DNA of 64,000 nucleotides. It comes from Thecaphora thlaspeos (Eukaryota; Basidiomycota; Ustilaginomycetes; Urocystidales; Glomosporiaceae). The notes under the pieces are model-generated. The model saw nothing but the letters and a program-made list of their open reading frames with translations, was not told where the DNA came from and searched no databases. Location: positions 596,658 through 660,657 of the forward strand of contig UWYS01000015.1 in NCBI GenBank assembly GCA_900291925.1. The letters are read 5' to 3'. This document shows, in pieces, positions 36,447 to 41,081 of the stretch. Numbering within the stretch: the stretch's first letter is position 1; every line of letters begins with the position of its first letter. Position numbers and translations under genes: made by a program.

Positions 36447-39400
36447 ATGTCACTCCACCGCTCCACCACGACCTCAAACACCTCGCTCATCTCTTCGCTA
36501 GTCCGCCTCGCACCGCCCACCGCCACCTCTCATCCCAGACCACCTAGCCGTCCCCTTCGCCCGCGCCCAGCCCCCGCCCACGGCCGCCACAGGAACGCAT
36601 CCACCGCACAGCACCCGCCCTCTATCCGGCCTAACACCTCTGCTGCGTCCGACAACAGTGCAGCGAGCCAGCAGCAACATCAACAGCAGCACCACCACCA
36701 CCACCACCAACAACAACAACGACAACAACAGCAGCAACATGAACAGCAGCCGCAGGAGCAGGAGCAGGAGCAACAGCAAGCGCATCAGCCGCAGCAGACA
36801 CTCGCCGGCTCCTCGCACGAAGACCTCCTCAAACAGCGATTCTACCATGCCCAGTCGCAGAACAAAAAGGCCGTCAATGTCGTCATGACGGGCGCCATCA
36901 ATGCCCTCGGCGGCTCGCGCGGCGACACCACCCTCCTGCCCCCAGAGACCGAGACCACCAGCAGCGCCAGCAGCAGCAACGCCAGCAGTACTTCCTCGCC
37001 TTCAGCAGACACCTCTTGGACCGCGGCAGGACGCCGCTCGCAGCCCAGCGGCTCGCCATCTGCGTCGTCCCAAAGTGCCGCGTCTTCCGCCTCGACCGCT
37101 GACTCGACTGCGGAAAGCGACGGGTCGAGCAGTGCTAGCGGCGGCGACGAGGGCGCTGCCGTCCATGTGCAGCACGATCCCAGGCTCGAGCTGCACGCAC
37201 CGGCTCAGGCGCTGCGCAGCCTCGAGGTCCCCTTTGACACGCACGCCTTTGTAAAGAGGCTGGAAGAGGGCGGCTGGACCTCGAGCGTCCTCCAGGCAGG
37301 CGTCGAAGCCGGCAGCAAGTACAAGGCGGCGGCAGAACGGACAACGACCGGCGGGCAGTCGTCGGAGCAGGAACTGGCGCAGGGACAAGGGCAGACAGAG
37401 GCACACGAGGACGGGCCGCGGCCGGAGCAGATGGCGCTCCAGATCAGTCGGCGCCACGACCCGGCCGAGGCCATTATGGAGCACGCGCGCTTCCTCATCA
37501 CGCGGCGTGGCGGCCAGACGGCCCAGGCCTGCCTCAACAAGGGTGACGTCGAGAACCAGGCCTACCTCTTCAGCGCCGCACTCTCGGAGCTGCAGACCGA
37601 GGTCCAGGTGCGCGCCCGCAACGACGCTGCCGCGCTCCACAGCATCACGACGCTGCTCCAGCGCGAGGTCGATGCGCTCGAGCAAAAGATGAAGGAGGAC
37701 GTCGAGCGCCTCAAGCACGACATCCAGGTCGACATGAACAACCGCAAGGCCGAGTCCAAGGAGGAGCAGAACAAGGTCGAGCAGGAGATCCAGGACCTCC
37801 ACAACCGCTTCACCATCAGCCTCTCGGACCTCAAGACCGAGATCGAGCAGAACGTCAAGTGGGATGCGACGCGGCGCAGCCTCTTTTTGGTGTTCGGCAT
37901 CGCCGCCATCGTCGCGGCCAACCTCGCCATCGCCGACTACATGATGCGCGACGACGATGCGATCGCCTCGAAGGCGGCGGCGGCTGCTGCGGCGGGCAGA
38001 GAGGTGCCCGCGCACCTGGCAGGGGAGCCGCCGGCATCGCTGGGCTGGGCCGCAGAGGGACGTGTGCTGTCGGCGTGGCCCGTCCTCAGCCTCGGCGCCT
38101 CGCTCCGCTTCCGTGCGGCGCCCGCGATGGTCCGGGCCGCCGCCGCATCGATCTGGTCGGCGGCGCCGTCGCGCGGTGTCGCGGCGGTCGGGCTGCACCG
38201 CACGCTTGGCAGCCTGGCATCGGCACCCGGTGCCACCGAGGCGCTCGAACGGCGGCGATCCCATCTTCGACTCCCTCAACGGCAACGGCGGCGACCGCAG
38301 ACGGCGGCGTGGATGCCAGCAGCGATATCGGCCGTCGGTCTTTCGCGCACGCTGCACTCTGGCTCCCGCTCGCAGCAGGCGTCGGTGGCCCGCTCCTCGT
38401 CCTCCCGGCCCACGTCTGAGCCGCTGATCGTGCCCGAGACGGACATCTCGATCGACCTCCATCCTGCCAGCGTCTCGATCCGGTCCGACCGCCTGGGGCT
38501 CGCGCCGTTTCGCTTTGACCACGTCTGGCTCCGCGACGCATGCCAGGCGCAGGGCAGCGTCCACGCGAGCAACAAGCAGAAGCTCTTCCACACCAGCGAC
38601 GTCCCGCTCGACGTCGCACTGCTGGACGCCGAGCATCCGCCGGTGCTCGTCACCCGCGACGTCCCTGGGGACAAGGAGCACGTCTTGCGCGTCACGTTCG
38701 CCAAGGAGCACGCCGTCCACAACGCCTTCACCGCCCTCTTCCAGCAGCCCACGCCCGCCAAAGAGGCCCACGTCTCTGACTTCTCGATCTCGTTTCTCCT
38801 CCATCACGCACTGCCGGACCTCTACGCCCACACCCACATGGACGTGATGGCGGTCCCTCAGGCGTGGGCGGGCAAGGATCCTCTAGCGCTCGGCGCCATG
38901 GCCCGGCCGGCCCGCATCCCCTACGATGCCATCAGGCCCGCGCCCACCGGCGGCTCGAGAGGAGCAGGAGTGGAAGCGGAGGCCGCCGCATCGATGATGG
39001 ACGAGGCGCGCGACGAGGCCCTCTACGCGTTGACCGAGGCGACGATCCGCGACGGATTTGCCTTTGTCACGGGAGTCCCCACGATCAAGACCGCGACCGA
39101 GGCCGGCCCGGAGGCGGCGACGTTGCGTCAACTCGCCTCGATGATGGGCGAGATCCGCCACACCTTCTACGGCGAGCTGTGGGACGTCCAGTCGAAGCCG
39201 TCGTCTGACAACATCGCCTACACCAACCTCGACCTGGGCTTGCACATGGACCTTCTCTATTTCCAGAACCCGCCGCGCTTCCAGTTCCTCCACATGCTGC
39301 GCAACCGCGTCAAGGGCGGCGCGAGCATCTTTGTCGACAGCTTCAAGGTGGCCGAGCGGATGTGGGCCGAGGACCGCAAGCTGTGGGAGGTGCTGGCGCG

Positions 39401-41081: not shown

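What the first reader, a model, noticed from the sequence alone, without database searches (positions are those of the whole stretch)
36447..41081. Three mitochondrial proteins encoded as one continuous 1544-residue polyprotein (Fmp32-like, BBOX-like, Cox10)
Seen: a single frame with no stop or needed intron contains a DUF1640/CCDC90 protein ending in its membrane helix, a full TauD-type gamma-butyrobetaine dioxygenase-like enzyme and a full heme O synthase. Each module is preceded by Arg/Ser/Ala-rich, acid-poor text (AAISAVGLSRTLHSGSR before module 2; RRMFSTTARRSA after a Gly linker before module 3). Known: Schizosaccharomyces pombe makes Cox15-Yah1 and Rsm22-Cox11 as fused precursors that are cut by the matrix processing peptidase, and Arg5,6 is similar. 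Inferred: this is a new, three-part fused precursor cleaved at internal presequences, which would tie cytochrome oxidase heme supply, carnitine-type metabolism and an inner-membrane factor to one transcript.
Basis: partly seen in the sequence, partly recalled or inferred. Interest (0 to 1): 0.88.

Follow-up and report, generated by a model that had tools for sequence, protein, structure and literature searches.

The report
Three-in-one mitochondrial polyprotein in smut fungi
A smut fungus encodes three different mitochondrial proteins, including the enzyme that starts heme A synthesis, as one long chain whose joints look like natural cutting sites, and a number of related fungi share the arrangement.

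Summary
One ATG-to-stop frame (36447-41081, 1544 aa) carries a CCDC90/MCUR1-type protein, a BBOX/TmpA-like dioxygenase and a heme O synthase. Open linkers alone are weak evidence: they stay open in 843 and 911 of 2000 shuffles. The strong evidence is comparative. Sixteen other proteins (11 named species, 5 unnamed contigs) have the same three modules in order. The linkers diverge, yet each keeps a presequence-type processing motif in 17 of 17 sequences (shuffle means 4.3 and 2.9). No start Met is shared by all 17, and 4 of 17 have none in linker 2. The window's linker 2 (Gly-run, RRMFST) resembles an engineered internal MPP site (PMC10450427). Among sister lineages, modules 2 and 3 also occur as separate proteins, and nine proteins tie Cox10 to another partner with an internal motif in 9 of 9. 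Best reading: a three-part precursor cut by MPP, then Icp55, inside mitochondria. Cleavage itself is not shown, and module 1's membrane helix leaves the import route puzzling. New variant of a known kind (Arg5,6-type tandem precursors).

The parts
36447..41081 (+). Single open reading frame, 1544 codons plus stop, encoding the three-module precursor
   Evidence: no stop inside; 16 other proteins of like architecture
36447..36599 (+). Probable N-terminal presequence of module 1 (residues 1-51; free of Asp and Glu to residue 68, with 9 Arg/Lys)
   Evidence: composition only; the processing motif used for the joints is not enriched in the first 125 positions (3 of 16 vs 2.4 expected)
37233..37919 (+). 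Module 1: CCDC90/MCUR1-like (DUF1640) domain, residues 263-491
   Evidence: PF07798 154.8 bits
37878..37934 (+). Transmembrane helix of module 1, residues 478-496
   Evidence: Kyte-Doolittle mean 2.37 over 19 residues; 2.32-2.37 in the 17 sequences
37956..38417 (+). Linker 1 (J1), residues 504-657: basic, acid-poor, variable; includes a conserved stretch (P-A-S-L-G-W-A-x-E-G-R-x-L-S) and ends in a processing motif
38346..38360 (+). Candidate processing site before module 2 (RTLHS, residues 634-638)
   Evidence: like-placed motif in 15 of 17 sequences (matches starting at offset 97 or later of J1; not P0012, P0016); some J1 motif in 17 of 17; the Arg column is kept in 16 of 17
38418..39848 (+). 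Module 2: BBOX/TmpA-like Fe(II)/2-oxoglutarate dioxygenase, residues 658-1134 (TauD core 855-1118)
   Evidence: PF02668 156.6 bits; TIGR02409 194.5 bits, below its cut-off; PDB sequence hits TmpA and BBOX; best fold hits TmpA and human BBOX1, from a middling model
39849..40079 (+). Linker 2 (J2), residues 1135-1211: Gly-rich, then RRMFSTTARR
39948..39965 (+). Candidate MPP/Icp55 site before module 3 (RRMFST, residues 1168-1173); expected MPP cut between M1170 and F1171, then Icp55 removal of F1171 (inferred)
   Evidence: R1169 column Arg in 17 of 17, F1171 column Phe in 16, T1173 column Thr in 16; resembles an engineered MPP site
40080..41078 (+). Module 3: heme O synthase (Cox10), residues 1212-1544
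   Evidence: TIGR01473 254.4 bits vs cut-off 210.3; only match above that cut-off in the held genome

Best explanation
The gene encodes one mitochondrial precursor made of three proteins that elsewhere are separate; modules 2 and 3 are still led by presequence-like joints. Shown by sequence: one frame, three complete domains, conserved order in 17 sequences, and processing motifs in both linkers. Inferred: the precursor enters through TOM/TIM23 led by the N-terminal presequence; the matrix peptidase MPP cuts after R-x in linkers 1 and 2, and Icp55 trims the exposed Phe or Leu, giving a CCDC90/MCUR1-type inner-membrane protein, a matrix trimethylammonium-type dioxygenase (probably the BBOX step of carnitine synthesis) and Cox10. 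Because module 1 ends in a membrane helix and no second helix was found before module 2, the chain must either be drawn wholly into the matrix before module 1 is inserted, or re-enter by the presequence-like linker 1.
For: One open frame and three domains over Pfam cut-offs. 16 of the 19 hits carry all three domains and align along the window's protein (P0014 lacks the N-terminal region, P0017 lacks two stretches, P0004 is partial). Linkers are variable (mean share of the commonest residue 0.44 and 0.47, against 0.82-0.91 in the modules), but the motif R.[FYLIM][STAH][STA] is in 17 of 17 J1 (residues 504-657) and 17 of 17 J2 (means of 2000 shuffles 4.3 and 2.9, maxima 11 and 10), and R.[FYL][AS] is denser there (1.89 and 1.25 per 100 aa) than in modules 1-3 (0.31, 0.28, 0.05). 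At the J2 site R.[FL][STHV][TS] holds in 17 of 17 and R.F[SH]T in 12 of 17, with an upstream R/K in every row. Published features of such sites agree: RX(F/Y/I/L) before (S/A)(S/T) for plant Icp55, said to be remarkably similar in yeast and mammals (passages of PMC8847149); distal Arg, flexible stretch, Arg at -2/-3, then FHT or FST, with RGGGRRAFHT cut inside polyproteins in yeast mitochondria (section 6 of PMC10450427). No Met column is shared by all 17 (best 10 of 17 in J1, not in this window; best 4 of 17 in J2), and J2 has no Met in 4 of 17. Cox10 is the held genome's only match above the heme O synthase cut-off, so if the assembly is complete a working Cox10 must come from this gene. A separate lineage joins Cox10 to another protein and also keeps an internal RR.[FY].[TS][QSNT], 9 of 9 (shuffle mean 0.012).
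Against: No transcript, proteome or cleavage data were available. I chose the motif patterns after seeing the alignments. The wide motif is not enriched at the module-1 N-terminus (3 of 16, expected 2.4), and it also occurs inside modules 1 (15 of 17) and 2 (17 of 17) and in the 126-240 stretch (16 of 16). The 17 sequences are related, so the shuffle control overstates independence. Only 6 of 10 stand-alone Cox10 proteins show the wide motif upstream of the core. Yeast Put6/Put7, of the module-1 family, have the soluble N-domain in the matrix (passages of PMC7519068), which would leave everything after the helix on the other side of the membrane from MPP unless import is complete first; no second hydrophobic helix was found in J1 (highest 19-residue mean 0.86-1.68 over the 17). 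Three relatives' gene models are fragments with garbled joints (P0021, P0176, P0123).
Confidence: 0.72

Rival explanations
1. The protein is cut at only one joint (most likely J2), so that modules 1 and 2 stay together as a membrane-anchored dioxygenase and Cox10 is released.
For: J2 has the cleaner motif: Arg in 17 of 17 and Phe in 16 of 17 in single columns. J1's motif next to module 2 is less uniform (15 of 17), and J1 follows a membrane helix with no second helix found.
Against: J1 also carries a motif in 17 of 17, and its composition is presequence-like (4.4% acidic, 13.1% basic). The eight stand-alone module-2 proteins aligned carry N-terminal extensions before the conserved start, some short.
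Confidence: 0.12
2. The chain stays whole as one trifunctional inner-membrane protein; the fusion couples the activities physically.
For: Fusion conserved in 17 sequences, of at least two orders by look-up; a stretch of J1 after module 1 is strongly conserved.
Against: Presequence-type motifs are kept in otherwise drifting linkers; the three activities share no pathway known to me; one chain would put the dioxygenase beyond a membrane helix.
Confidence: 0.08
3. Separate mRNAs or internal start codons make the three proteins; the open linkers are 5' leaders that happen to lack stops.
For: GC-rich linkers stay open by chance in 843 and 911 of 2000 shuffles; the window has Met residues in both linkers (2 and 3).
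Against: No Met column is shared by all; 4 of 17 J2 and 2 of 17 J1 contain no Met. Unbroken models in 17 sequences, with conserved peptide segments in both linkers, point to translation.
Confidence: 0.06
4. Assembly join or gene-model artefact.
For: Some relatives have fragmented models of this locus (P0021, P0176, P0123).
Against: Same order in 16 other proteins from several sources, 11 of them with species names; the Cox10 cores of the 17 form one group (95/88).
Confidence: 0.01

Closest known systems
Arg5,6 of Saccharomyces cerevisiae (tandem precursor cut internally by MPP; Friedl et al. 2020 as cited in PMC8847149)
   Same: One nuclear gene, two mitochondrial enzymes, an internal MPP cleavage site.
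   Different: Two modules in one pathway (arginine synthesis, recalled); here three modules of no shared pathway known to me, one with a membrane helix before the first joint.
Composite precursors listed in PMC8847149: Etp1, Rsm22-Cox11 and SPAC22A12.08c of S. pombe, Atp25, rice RPS14
   Same: Fused mitochondrial precursors with internal targeting-like stretches and MPP motifs; Rsm22-Cox11 also includes a cytochrome oxidase factor (recalled).
   Different: In the passages read none is described as three-part or as holding Cox10 or a BBOX-like enzyme. The Cox15-Yah1 make-up of Etp1 was not confirmed; one review passage speaks of Yah1 and Arh1 (PMC7140478).
Engineered MPP-cleaved polyproteins in yeast mitochondria (PMC10450427)
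   Same: Several proteins separated by short R...GGG...RRAF(H/S)T sites; the natural J2 of the window (R...Gly-run...RRMFST) looks alike.
   Different: Designed enzyme sets; here natural and with membrane proteins.
Cox10 joined to another N-terminal module in Jaminaea, Parajaminaea, Sympodiomycopsis and six unnamed contigs (alignment A2)
   Same: Cox10 as the last module, internal RR.[FY].[TS][QSNT] in 9 of 9.
   Different: Two modules, different partner (weak MMU163-like match in 1 of 9); a separate group in the Cox10 tree (100/99).

Membership tests
MPP-cleaved tandem mitochondrial precursors (Arg5,6 type) | two or more distinct mitochondrial-type proteins in one frame | tested here: met
MPP-cleaved tandem mitochondrial precursors (Arg5,6 type) | presequence-like, motif-bearing internal joints | tested here: met
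   17 of 17 at both joints; J2 columns; patterns chosen after seeing the alignment
MPP-cleaved tandem mitochondrial precursors (Arg5,6 type) | cleavage by MPP demonstrated | not testable with these tools
   needs biochemistry
MPP-cleaved tandem mitochondrial precursors (Arg5,6 type) | separate mature proteins are functional | not testable with these tools
   single heme O synthase match in the held genome makes it likely for module 3
Heme O synthase (Cox10) | passes the curated family model | tested here: met
   TIGR01473 254.4 vs 210.3 bits
Gamma-butyrobetaine dioxygenase (BBOX) | passes the curated family model TIGR02409 | tested here: not met
   194.5 vs 414.75 bits; hence filed as BBOX/TmpA-like only
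Gamma-butyrobetaine dioxygenase (BBOX) | Fe(II) triad and trimethylammonium cage (human H202, D204, H347; Y177, W181, Y194; and Y366) | tested here: met
   H933, D935, H1095, Y908, W912, Y925, Y1118 by the printed alignment (my count of positions; its H347 and Y366 part is in the third stretch shown) and the positions; invariant in 17 of 17; human roles from passages of PMC13257696
Gamma-butyrobetaine dioxygenase (BBOX) | N-terminal zinc cluster (CxCxxC, from recall) | tested here: not met
   at that place the window has a single Cys, C699
CCDC90/MCUR1/Fmp32 (DUF1640) | PF07798 domain with a membrane helix at its end | tested here: met
CCDC90/MCUR1/Fmp32 (DUF1640) | C-terminal tail [SK]-A-E-E-[WL]-G-L of unfused Ustilaginomycotina-type relatives | tested here: not met
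   seen by eye in 7 of the 10 unfused, unbroken proteins read (P0124, P0128, P0136, P0139, P0148, P0155, P0161; not in P0172, P0173, P0175); absent from the fusions, where J1 follows

The most novel reading that the evidence does not exclude
Ustilaginomycotina use presequences as internal punctuation again and again: Cox10 and the BBOX-like enzyme were joined to at least three different sets of mitochondrial partners (CCDC90+BBOX-like+Cox10; an unassigned, perhaps MMU163-like module+Cox10; HMG-CoA lyase+BBOX-like), each joint keeping a processing motif. The three-part form also strains a topological rule, since the first cut lies beyond a membrane helix, so whole-chain import before membrane insertion, or a restart of import at linker 1, must occur.
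Probability: 0.35. Interest if true: 0.78.

Novelty: new variant of a known kind. Interest (0 to 1): 0.63.

Why it matters
Natural MPP-cut precursors are few and, as far as I recall, two-part. A three-part one that ties what looks like the cell's only heme O synthase to two unrelated proteins, conserved in a group of fungi, gives a natural test of how far MPP can act as a polyprotein peptidase and of how a membrane helix in mid-chain is handled by TIM23. It may also explain wrong names in databases: Malassezia CCDC90 proteins called heme o synthase and Tilletia dioxygenases called protoheme IX farnesyltransferase.

Tried and rejected
Assembly artefact: rejected on conservation. Linker openness as proof: rejected, since shuffles stay open in 843 and 911 of 2000. 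Hidden intron in J2: looked for by eye in the printed DNA and set against the shared J2 peptide of P0001-P0003; no splice model was run. Second membrane helix in J1 that would solve the topology: not found by Kyte-Doolittle. Naming the partner in the A2 fusions: Pfam gave MMU163 in 1 of 9 at E 0.0075, and the model was poor (mean pLDDT 45.5), so no fold search was made with it. Fold of module 2: mean pLDDT 62.1; TmpA and BBOX1 are the top eight PDB matches but with TM-scores by query of only 0.41-0.48 and rmsd of 9.7-10.6, so it only agrees with the sequence result. Tree outgroups: 6 of 6 intended outgroup rows failed my anchor and were left out, so the Cox10 tree has no outgroup. In the module-2 tree P0017 was not included (a piece is missing) and P0058 failed the anchor; the fused rows group in only 41% of bootstraps. 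Gene order in sister lineages was not examined: the protein searches give no genomic context, and the genome collection on hand is stated to be bacterial and archaeal.
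Full report
What is there. The frame from the ATG at 36447 to the stop at 41079-41081 is uninterrupted and encodes 1544 residues. Pfam finds a CCDC90-like domain (263-491), a TauD domain (855-1118) and a UbiA domain (1253-1499), all far over their cut-offs, and nothing else at E up to 0.1. 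The heme O synthase model TIGR01473 is passed by module 3 (254.4 bits, cut-off 210.3), while module 2 reaches 194.5 bits of the 414.75 asked by the BBOX model and 192.8 of 400 for TmpA. The other long ORFs of the region (for instance 611 aa on the minus strand at 37002-38837) show how common chance ORFs are here: GC is 0.74-0.75 in the linkers, and shuffled linkers remain open in 843 of 2000 (linker 1) and 911 of 2000 (linker 2) cases. So the open frame across the joints in this one genome is weak evidence by itself.

Conservation. A search of about 5.8 billion proteins with residues 250-1500 (only the 7973 candidates sharing most words were scored, so the count is a lower bound) returned 19 proteins at E up to 0.001, of which 16 carry all three domains over 99-100% of the query at 60-74% identity. 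Of the other three, P0018 and P0019 carry UbiA only and P0020 a TauD domain with AAA-type and other domains. Eleven of the 16 bear species names: Thecaphora frezii, Violaceomyces palustris, Testicularia cyperi, Sporisorium reilianum, S. graminicola, Melanopsichium pennsylvanicum, Moesziomyces antarcticus, Kalmanozyma brasiliensis, Pseudozyma hubeiensis, Ustilago hordei and U. loliicola; five come from unnamed contigs. T. frezii is Urocystidales and V. palustris Violaceomycetales, both Ustilaginomycetes; that the rest are Ustilaginales is from recall. P0014 lacks the N-terminal region, P0017 lacks a stretch of module 2 and one near the end of module 3, and P0004 is marked partial. The window's nearest named relative is T. 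frezii (74%); its own genome is held as 20.59 Mb in 32 contigs. In a tree of Cox10 cores (37 rows, no outgroup) the 17 three-part proteins form one group with support 95/88.

The joints. Over the 17 sequences the commonest residue averages 0.83, 0.82 and 0.91 of rows in modules 1, 2 and 3, but 0.44 in J1 (residues 504-657) and 0.47 in J2 (1135-1211), with 30% and 26% gaps. Inside these drifting stretches some columns stand out. In J2 an Arg is invariant (17 of 17), followed by Phe (16) and Thr (16) two and four columns on. In J1 a stretch after module 1 is conserved (L, W, A, E, G, R, L and P columns in 17 of 17), and an Arg before module 2 is kept in 16. The motif R.[FYLIM][STAH][STA] is present in 17 of 17 J1 and 17 of 17 J2; composition-preserving shuffles gave means of 4.3 and 2.9 and maxima of 11 and 10 in 2000. 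In J1 15 of 17 have it in the last part, next to module 2 (P0012 and P0016 do not). The stricter R.[FYL][AS] is in 17 of 17 and 15 of 17, at 1.89 and 1.25 per 100 residues against 0.31, 0.28 and 0.05 in modules 1-3. Results against: the patterns were chosen after the alignment was seen; the wide motif is not enriched in the first 125 positions, where module 1's own presequence should lie (3 of 16, expected 2.4; strict density 0.22); it also occurs in 16 of 16 in positions 126-240 (strict density 0.76) and in 15 of 17 and 17 of 17 of the much longer modules 1 and 2.

What such a motif means. A review gives RX(F/Y/I/L) followed by (S/A)(S/T) as the plant Icp55 motif, calls it remarkably similar to yeast and mammalian sites, explains -3R sites as an MPP cut at -2R followed by Icp55, and says that internal cutting of a tandem precursor by MPP was shown for Arg5,6, with like motifs found in Atp25, Etp1, Rsm22-Cox11, SPAC22A12.08c and rice RPS14 (PMC8847149, passages read). 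An engineering paper reduced an internal MPP site to RGGGRRAFHT (also used with FST): a distal Arg, a flexible stretch, an Arg at -2/-3, then FHT or FST; it worked in polyproteins in yeast mitochondria (PMC10450427, section 6 in full and passages). The window's J2 reads R-TATNP-Gly8-RRMFST, the same layout. At the J2 site R.F[SH]T occurs in 12 of 17 and R.[FL][STHV][TS] in 17 of 17, with upstream R or K in all 17. The long Gly runs are peculiar to this window; the Arg-Phe-Ser-Thr core is not.

Internal starts. No Met column is shared by all 17: the best J1 column has 10 of 17 (not the window), the best J2 column 4 of 17. J2 has no Met in P0004, P0015, P0016 and P0017, and J1 none in P0007 and P0012. 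An AUG inside J2 is thus not open to those four proteins; an upstream exon or an AUG within module 2 would be needed.

Sister lineages. With modules 2+3 as query (282 proteins at E up to 1e-10, best 120 listed), proteins of module-2 type without the other modules, at 43-51% identity, appear in Acaromyces, Exobasidium, Ceraceosorus and Tilletia, and Cox10 without them in Tilletia and others. CCDC90 proteins without the other modules occur in Malassezia, Tilletia, Tilletiaria and Acaromyces; 7 of the 10 unfused, unbroken ones that I read end in a shared tail ([SK]-A-E-E-[WL]-G-L) that the fusions lack, while two Kwoniella and one Thelephora protein lack it too. An S-[DN]-D-P element in the second half of J2 is shared by 16 of 17 fusions, 9 of 9 A2 fusions and 7 of 10 stand-alone Cox10 proteins, so J2 contains the old N-terminal region of Cox10; the wide motif lies upstream of the core in 6 of those 10. 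The window is the one fusion without that element. Nine proteins (Jaminaea rosea, Parajaminaea phylloscopi, Sympodiomycopsis kandeliae and six unnamed) join another N-terminal module to Cox10 and carry RR.[FY].[TS][QSNT] between the two in 9 of 9 (shuffle mean 0.012, maximum 1; pattern chosen after alignment A2 was seen); they form their own group in the Cox10 tree (100/99). Three unnamed proteins join a part of HMG-CoA lyase to the module-2 enzyme (P0029 115.4 bits for PF00682; P0030 and P0032 by precomputed domains), with [RK]-R-x-A-S-T-S between them. One Malassezia protein (P0036) has a sub-threshold LYRM2-like match (24.6 of 26.8 bits) before Cox10. These point to repeated joining, with the caveat that several are unnamed contig ORFs.

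The modules. Cox10: besides this gene the held genome shows one other UbiA protein (C2; 67.3 bits of the heme O synthase model, below cut-off), so this is its only recognised heme O synthase. Module 2: the Fe ligands and the trimethylammonium cage of human BBOX map to H933, D935, H1095 and Y908, W912, Y925, with N922, R1112 and Y1118 also kept (alignment, positions, roles from passages of PMC13257696; the role of R360 = R1112 is from recall); all are invariant in the 17. The zinc-binding Cys cluster of BBOX (recalled) is reduced to one Cys. The genome's other TauD-type genes are a taurine-dioxygenase-like gene (C2, 178.6 of 313 bits), a distant one (C23) and a trimethyllysine-dioxygenase-like gene (C1; one exon scores 180.2 of 268.3 bits for that model and 109.3 for the BBOX model). 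Scored stretch by stretch with the BBOX model, C1 gives the best single stretch (116.9 bits) and the window two (106.6 and 67.9), so the BBOX label for module 2 rests on C1 fitting the trimethyllysine model better. Module 2 is the best BBOX candidate, but it fails the curated cut-off and I do not file it as BBOX. Module 1 belongs to the MCUR1/CCDC90 family; a second, apparently intron-split member lies on C18 (three stretches). Yeast Put6 (Fmp32) and Put7 form a complex and have N-terminal domains facing the matrix; that study found no respiratory defect without them, and cites another that did for Put6 (passages of PMC7519068).

Mechanism and its puzzle. The most likely course is import by the N-terminal presequence, cutting by MPP at both joints and trimming by Icp55. 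Module 1's helix (Kyte-Doolittle mean 2.37) is the only membrane-type segment that I found between module 1's core and module 2; J1 reaches 0.86-1.68. If the helix stopped transfer, the rest would lie in the intermembrane space, away from MPP. Either the whole chain enters the matrix first, or J1 restarts import. This is the most interesting open point.

Novelty. Paper searches for COX10 with Ustilago, fusion and mitochondrial (0), COX10 with heme, fusion protein and Basidiomycota (0), COX10 with butyrobetaine and fused (1, unrelated by title), and mitochondrial with gene fusion and Ustilaginomycotina (4; titles and abstract starts seen, none on this by those) found no description in the open-licence library; most subscription journals are not held. 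The gene models themselves are in public databases under names such as protoheme IX farnesyltransferase.

Noticed in passing
P0128, P0138, P0144, P0148, P0150, P0154, P0156; P0051, P0052, P0027: Names seem to have spread from the fusion: Malassezia CCDC90 proteins are called heme o synthase, and Tilletia and Ceraceosorus dioxygenases are called protoheme IX farnesyltransferase or cox10, though no UbiA domain is listed for them.
   Followed up: partly
P0029, P0030, P0032 (unnamed contigs): HMG-CoA lyase (partial) joined to the BBOX-like enzyme with a presequence-like joint between them.
   Followed up: partly
P0018, P0019, P0033, P0034, P0035, P0039, P0043, P0045, P0046 (alignment A2): Cox10 fused to a different, unassigned N-terminal module (weak MMU163-like match in 1 of 9) with an internal RR-x-aromatic motif in 9 of 9.
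   Followed up: partly
window 41344-43893, minus strand: Convergent neighbour: an ORF that looks like a translation release factor eRF3/EF-Tu-type GTPase with a Gln-rich N-terminus (by eye).
   Followed up: no
window 34045-35809, minus strand: Divergent upstream neighbour: ORFs on the minus strand, one of 359 aa with Asp and His runs and one that looks like a universal-stress-type protein (by eye).
   Followed up: no
window 36669-36800: Repeat-rich run coding a long Gln/His stretch between the presequence and module 1; other fusions have other, mostly shorter Gln-rich runs there (by eye).
   Followed up: no
P0021 and P0176 (both on a contig of 169799 bases), P0123: Fragmented gene models of this locus with joints that lose the frame; probably sequence errors, not checked at DNA level.
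   Followed up: no
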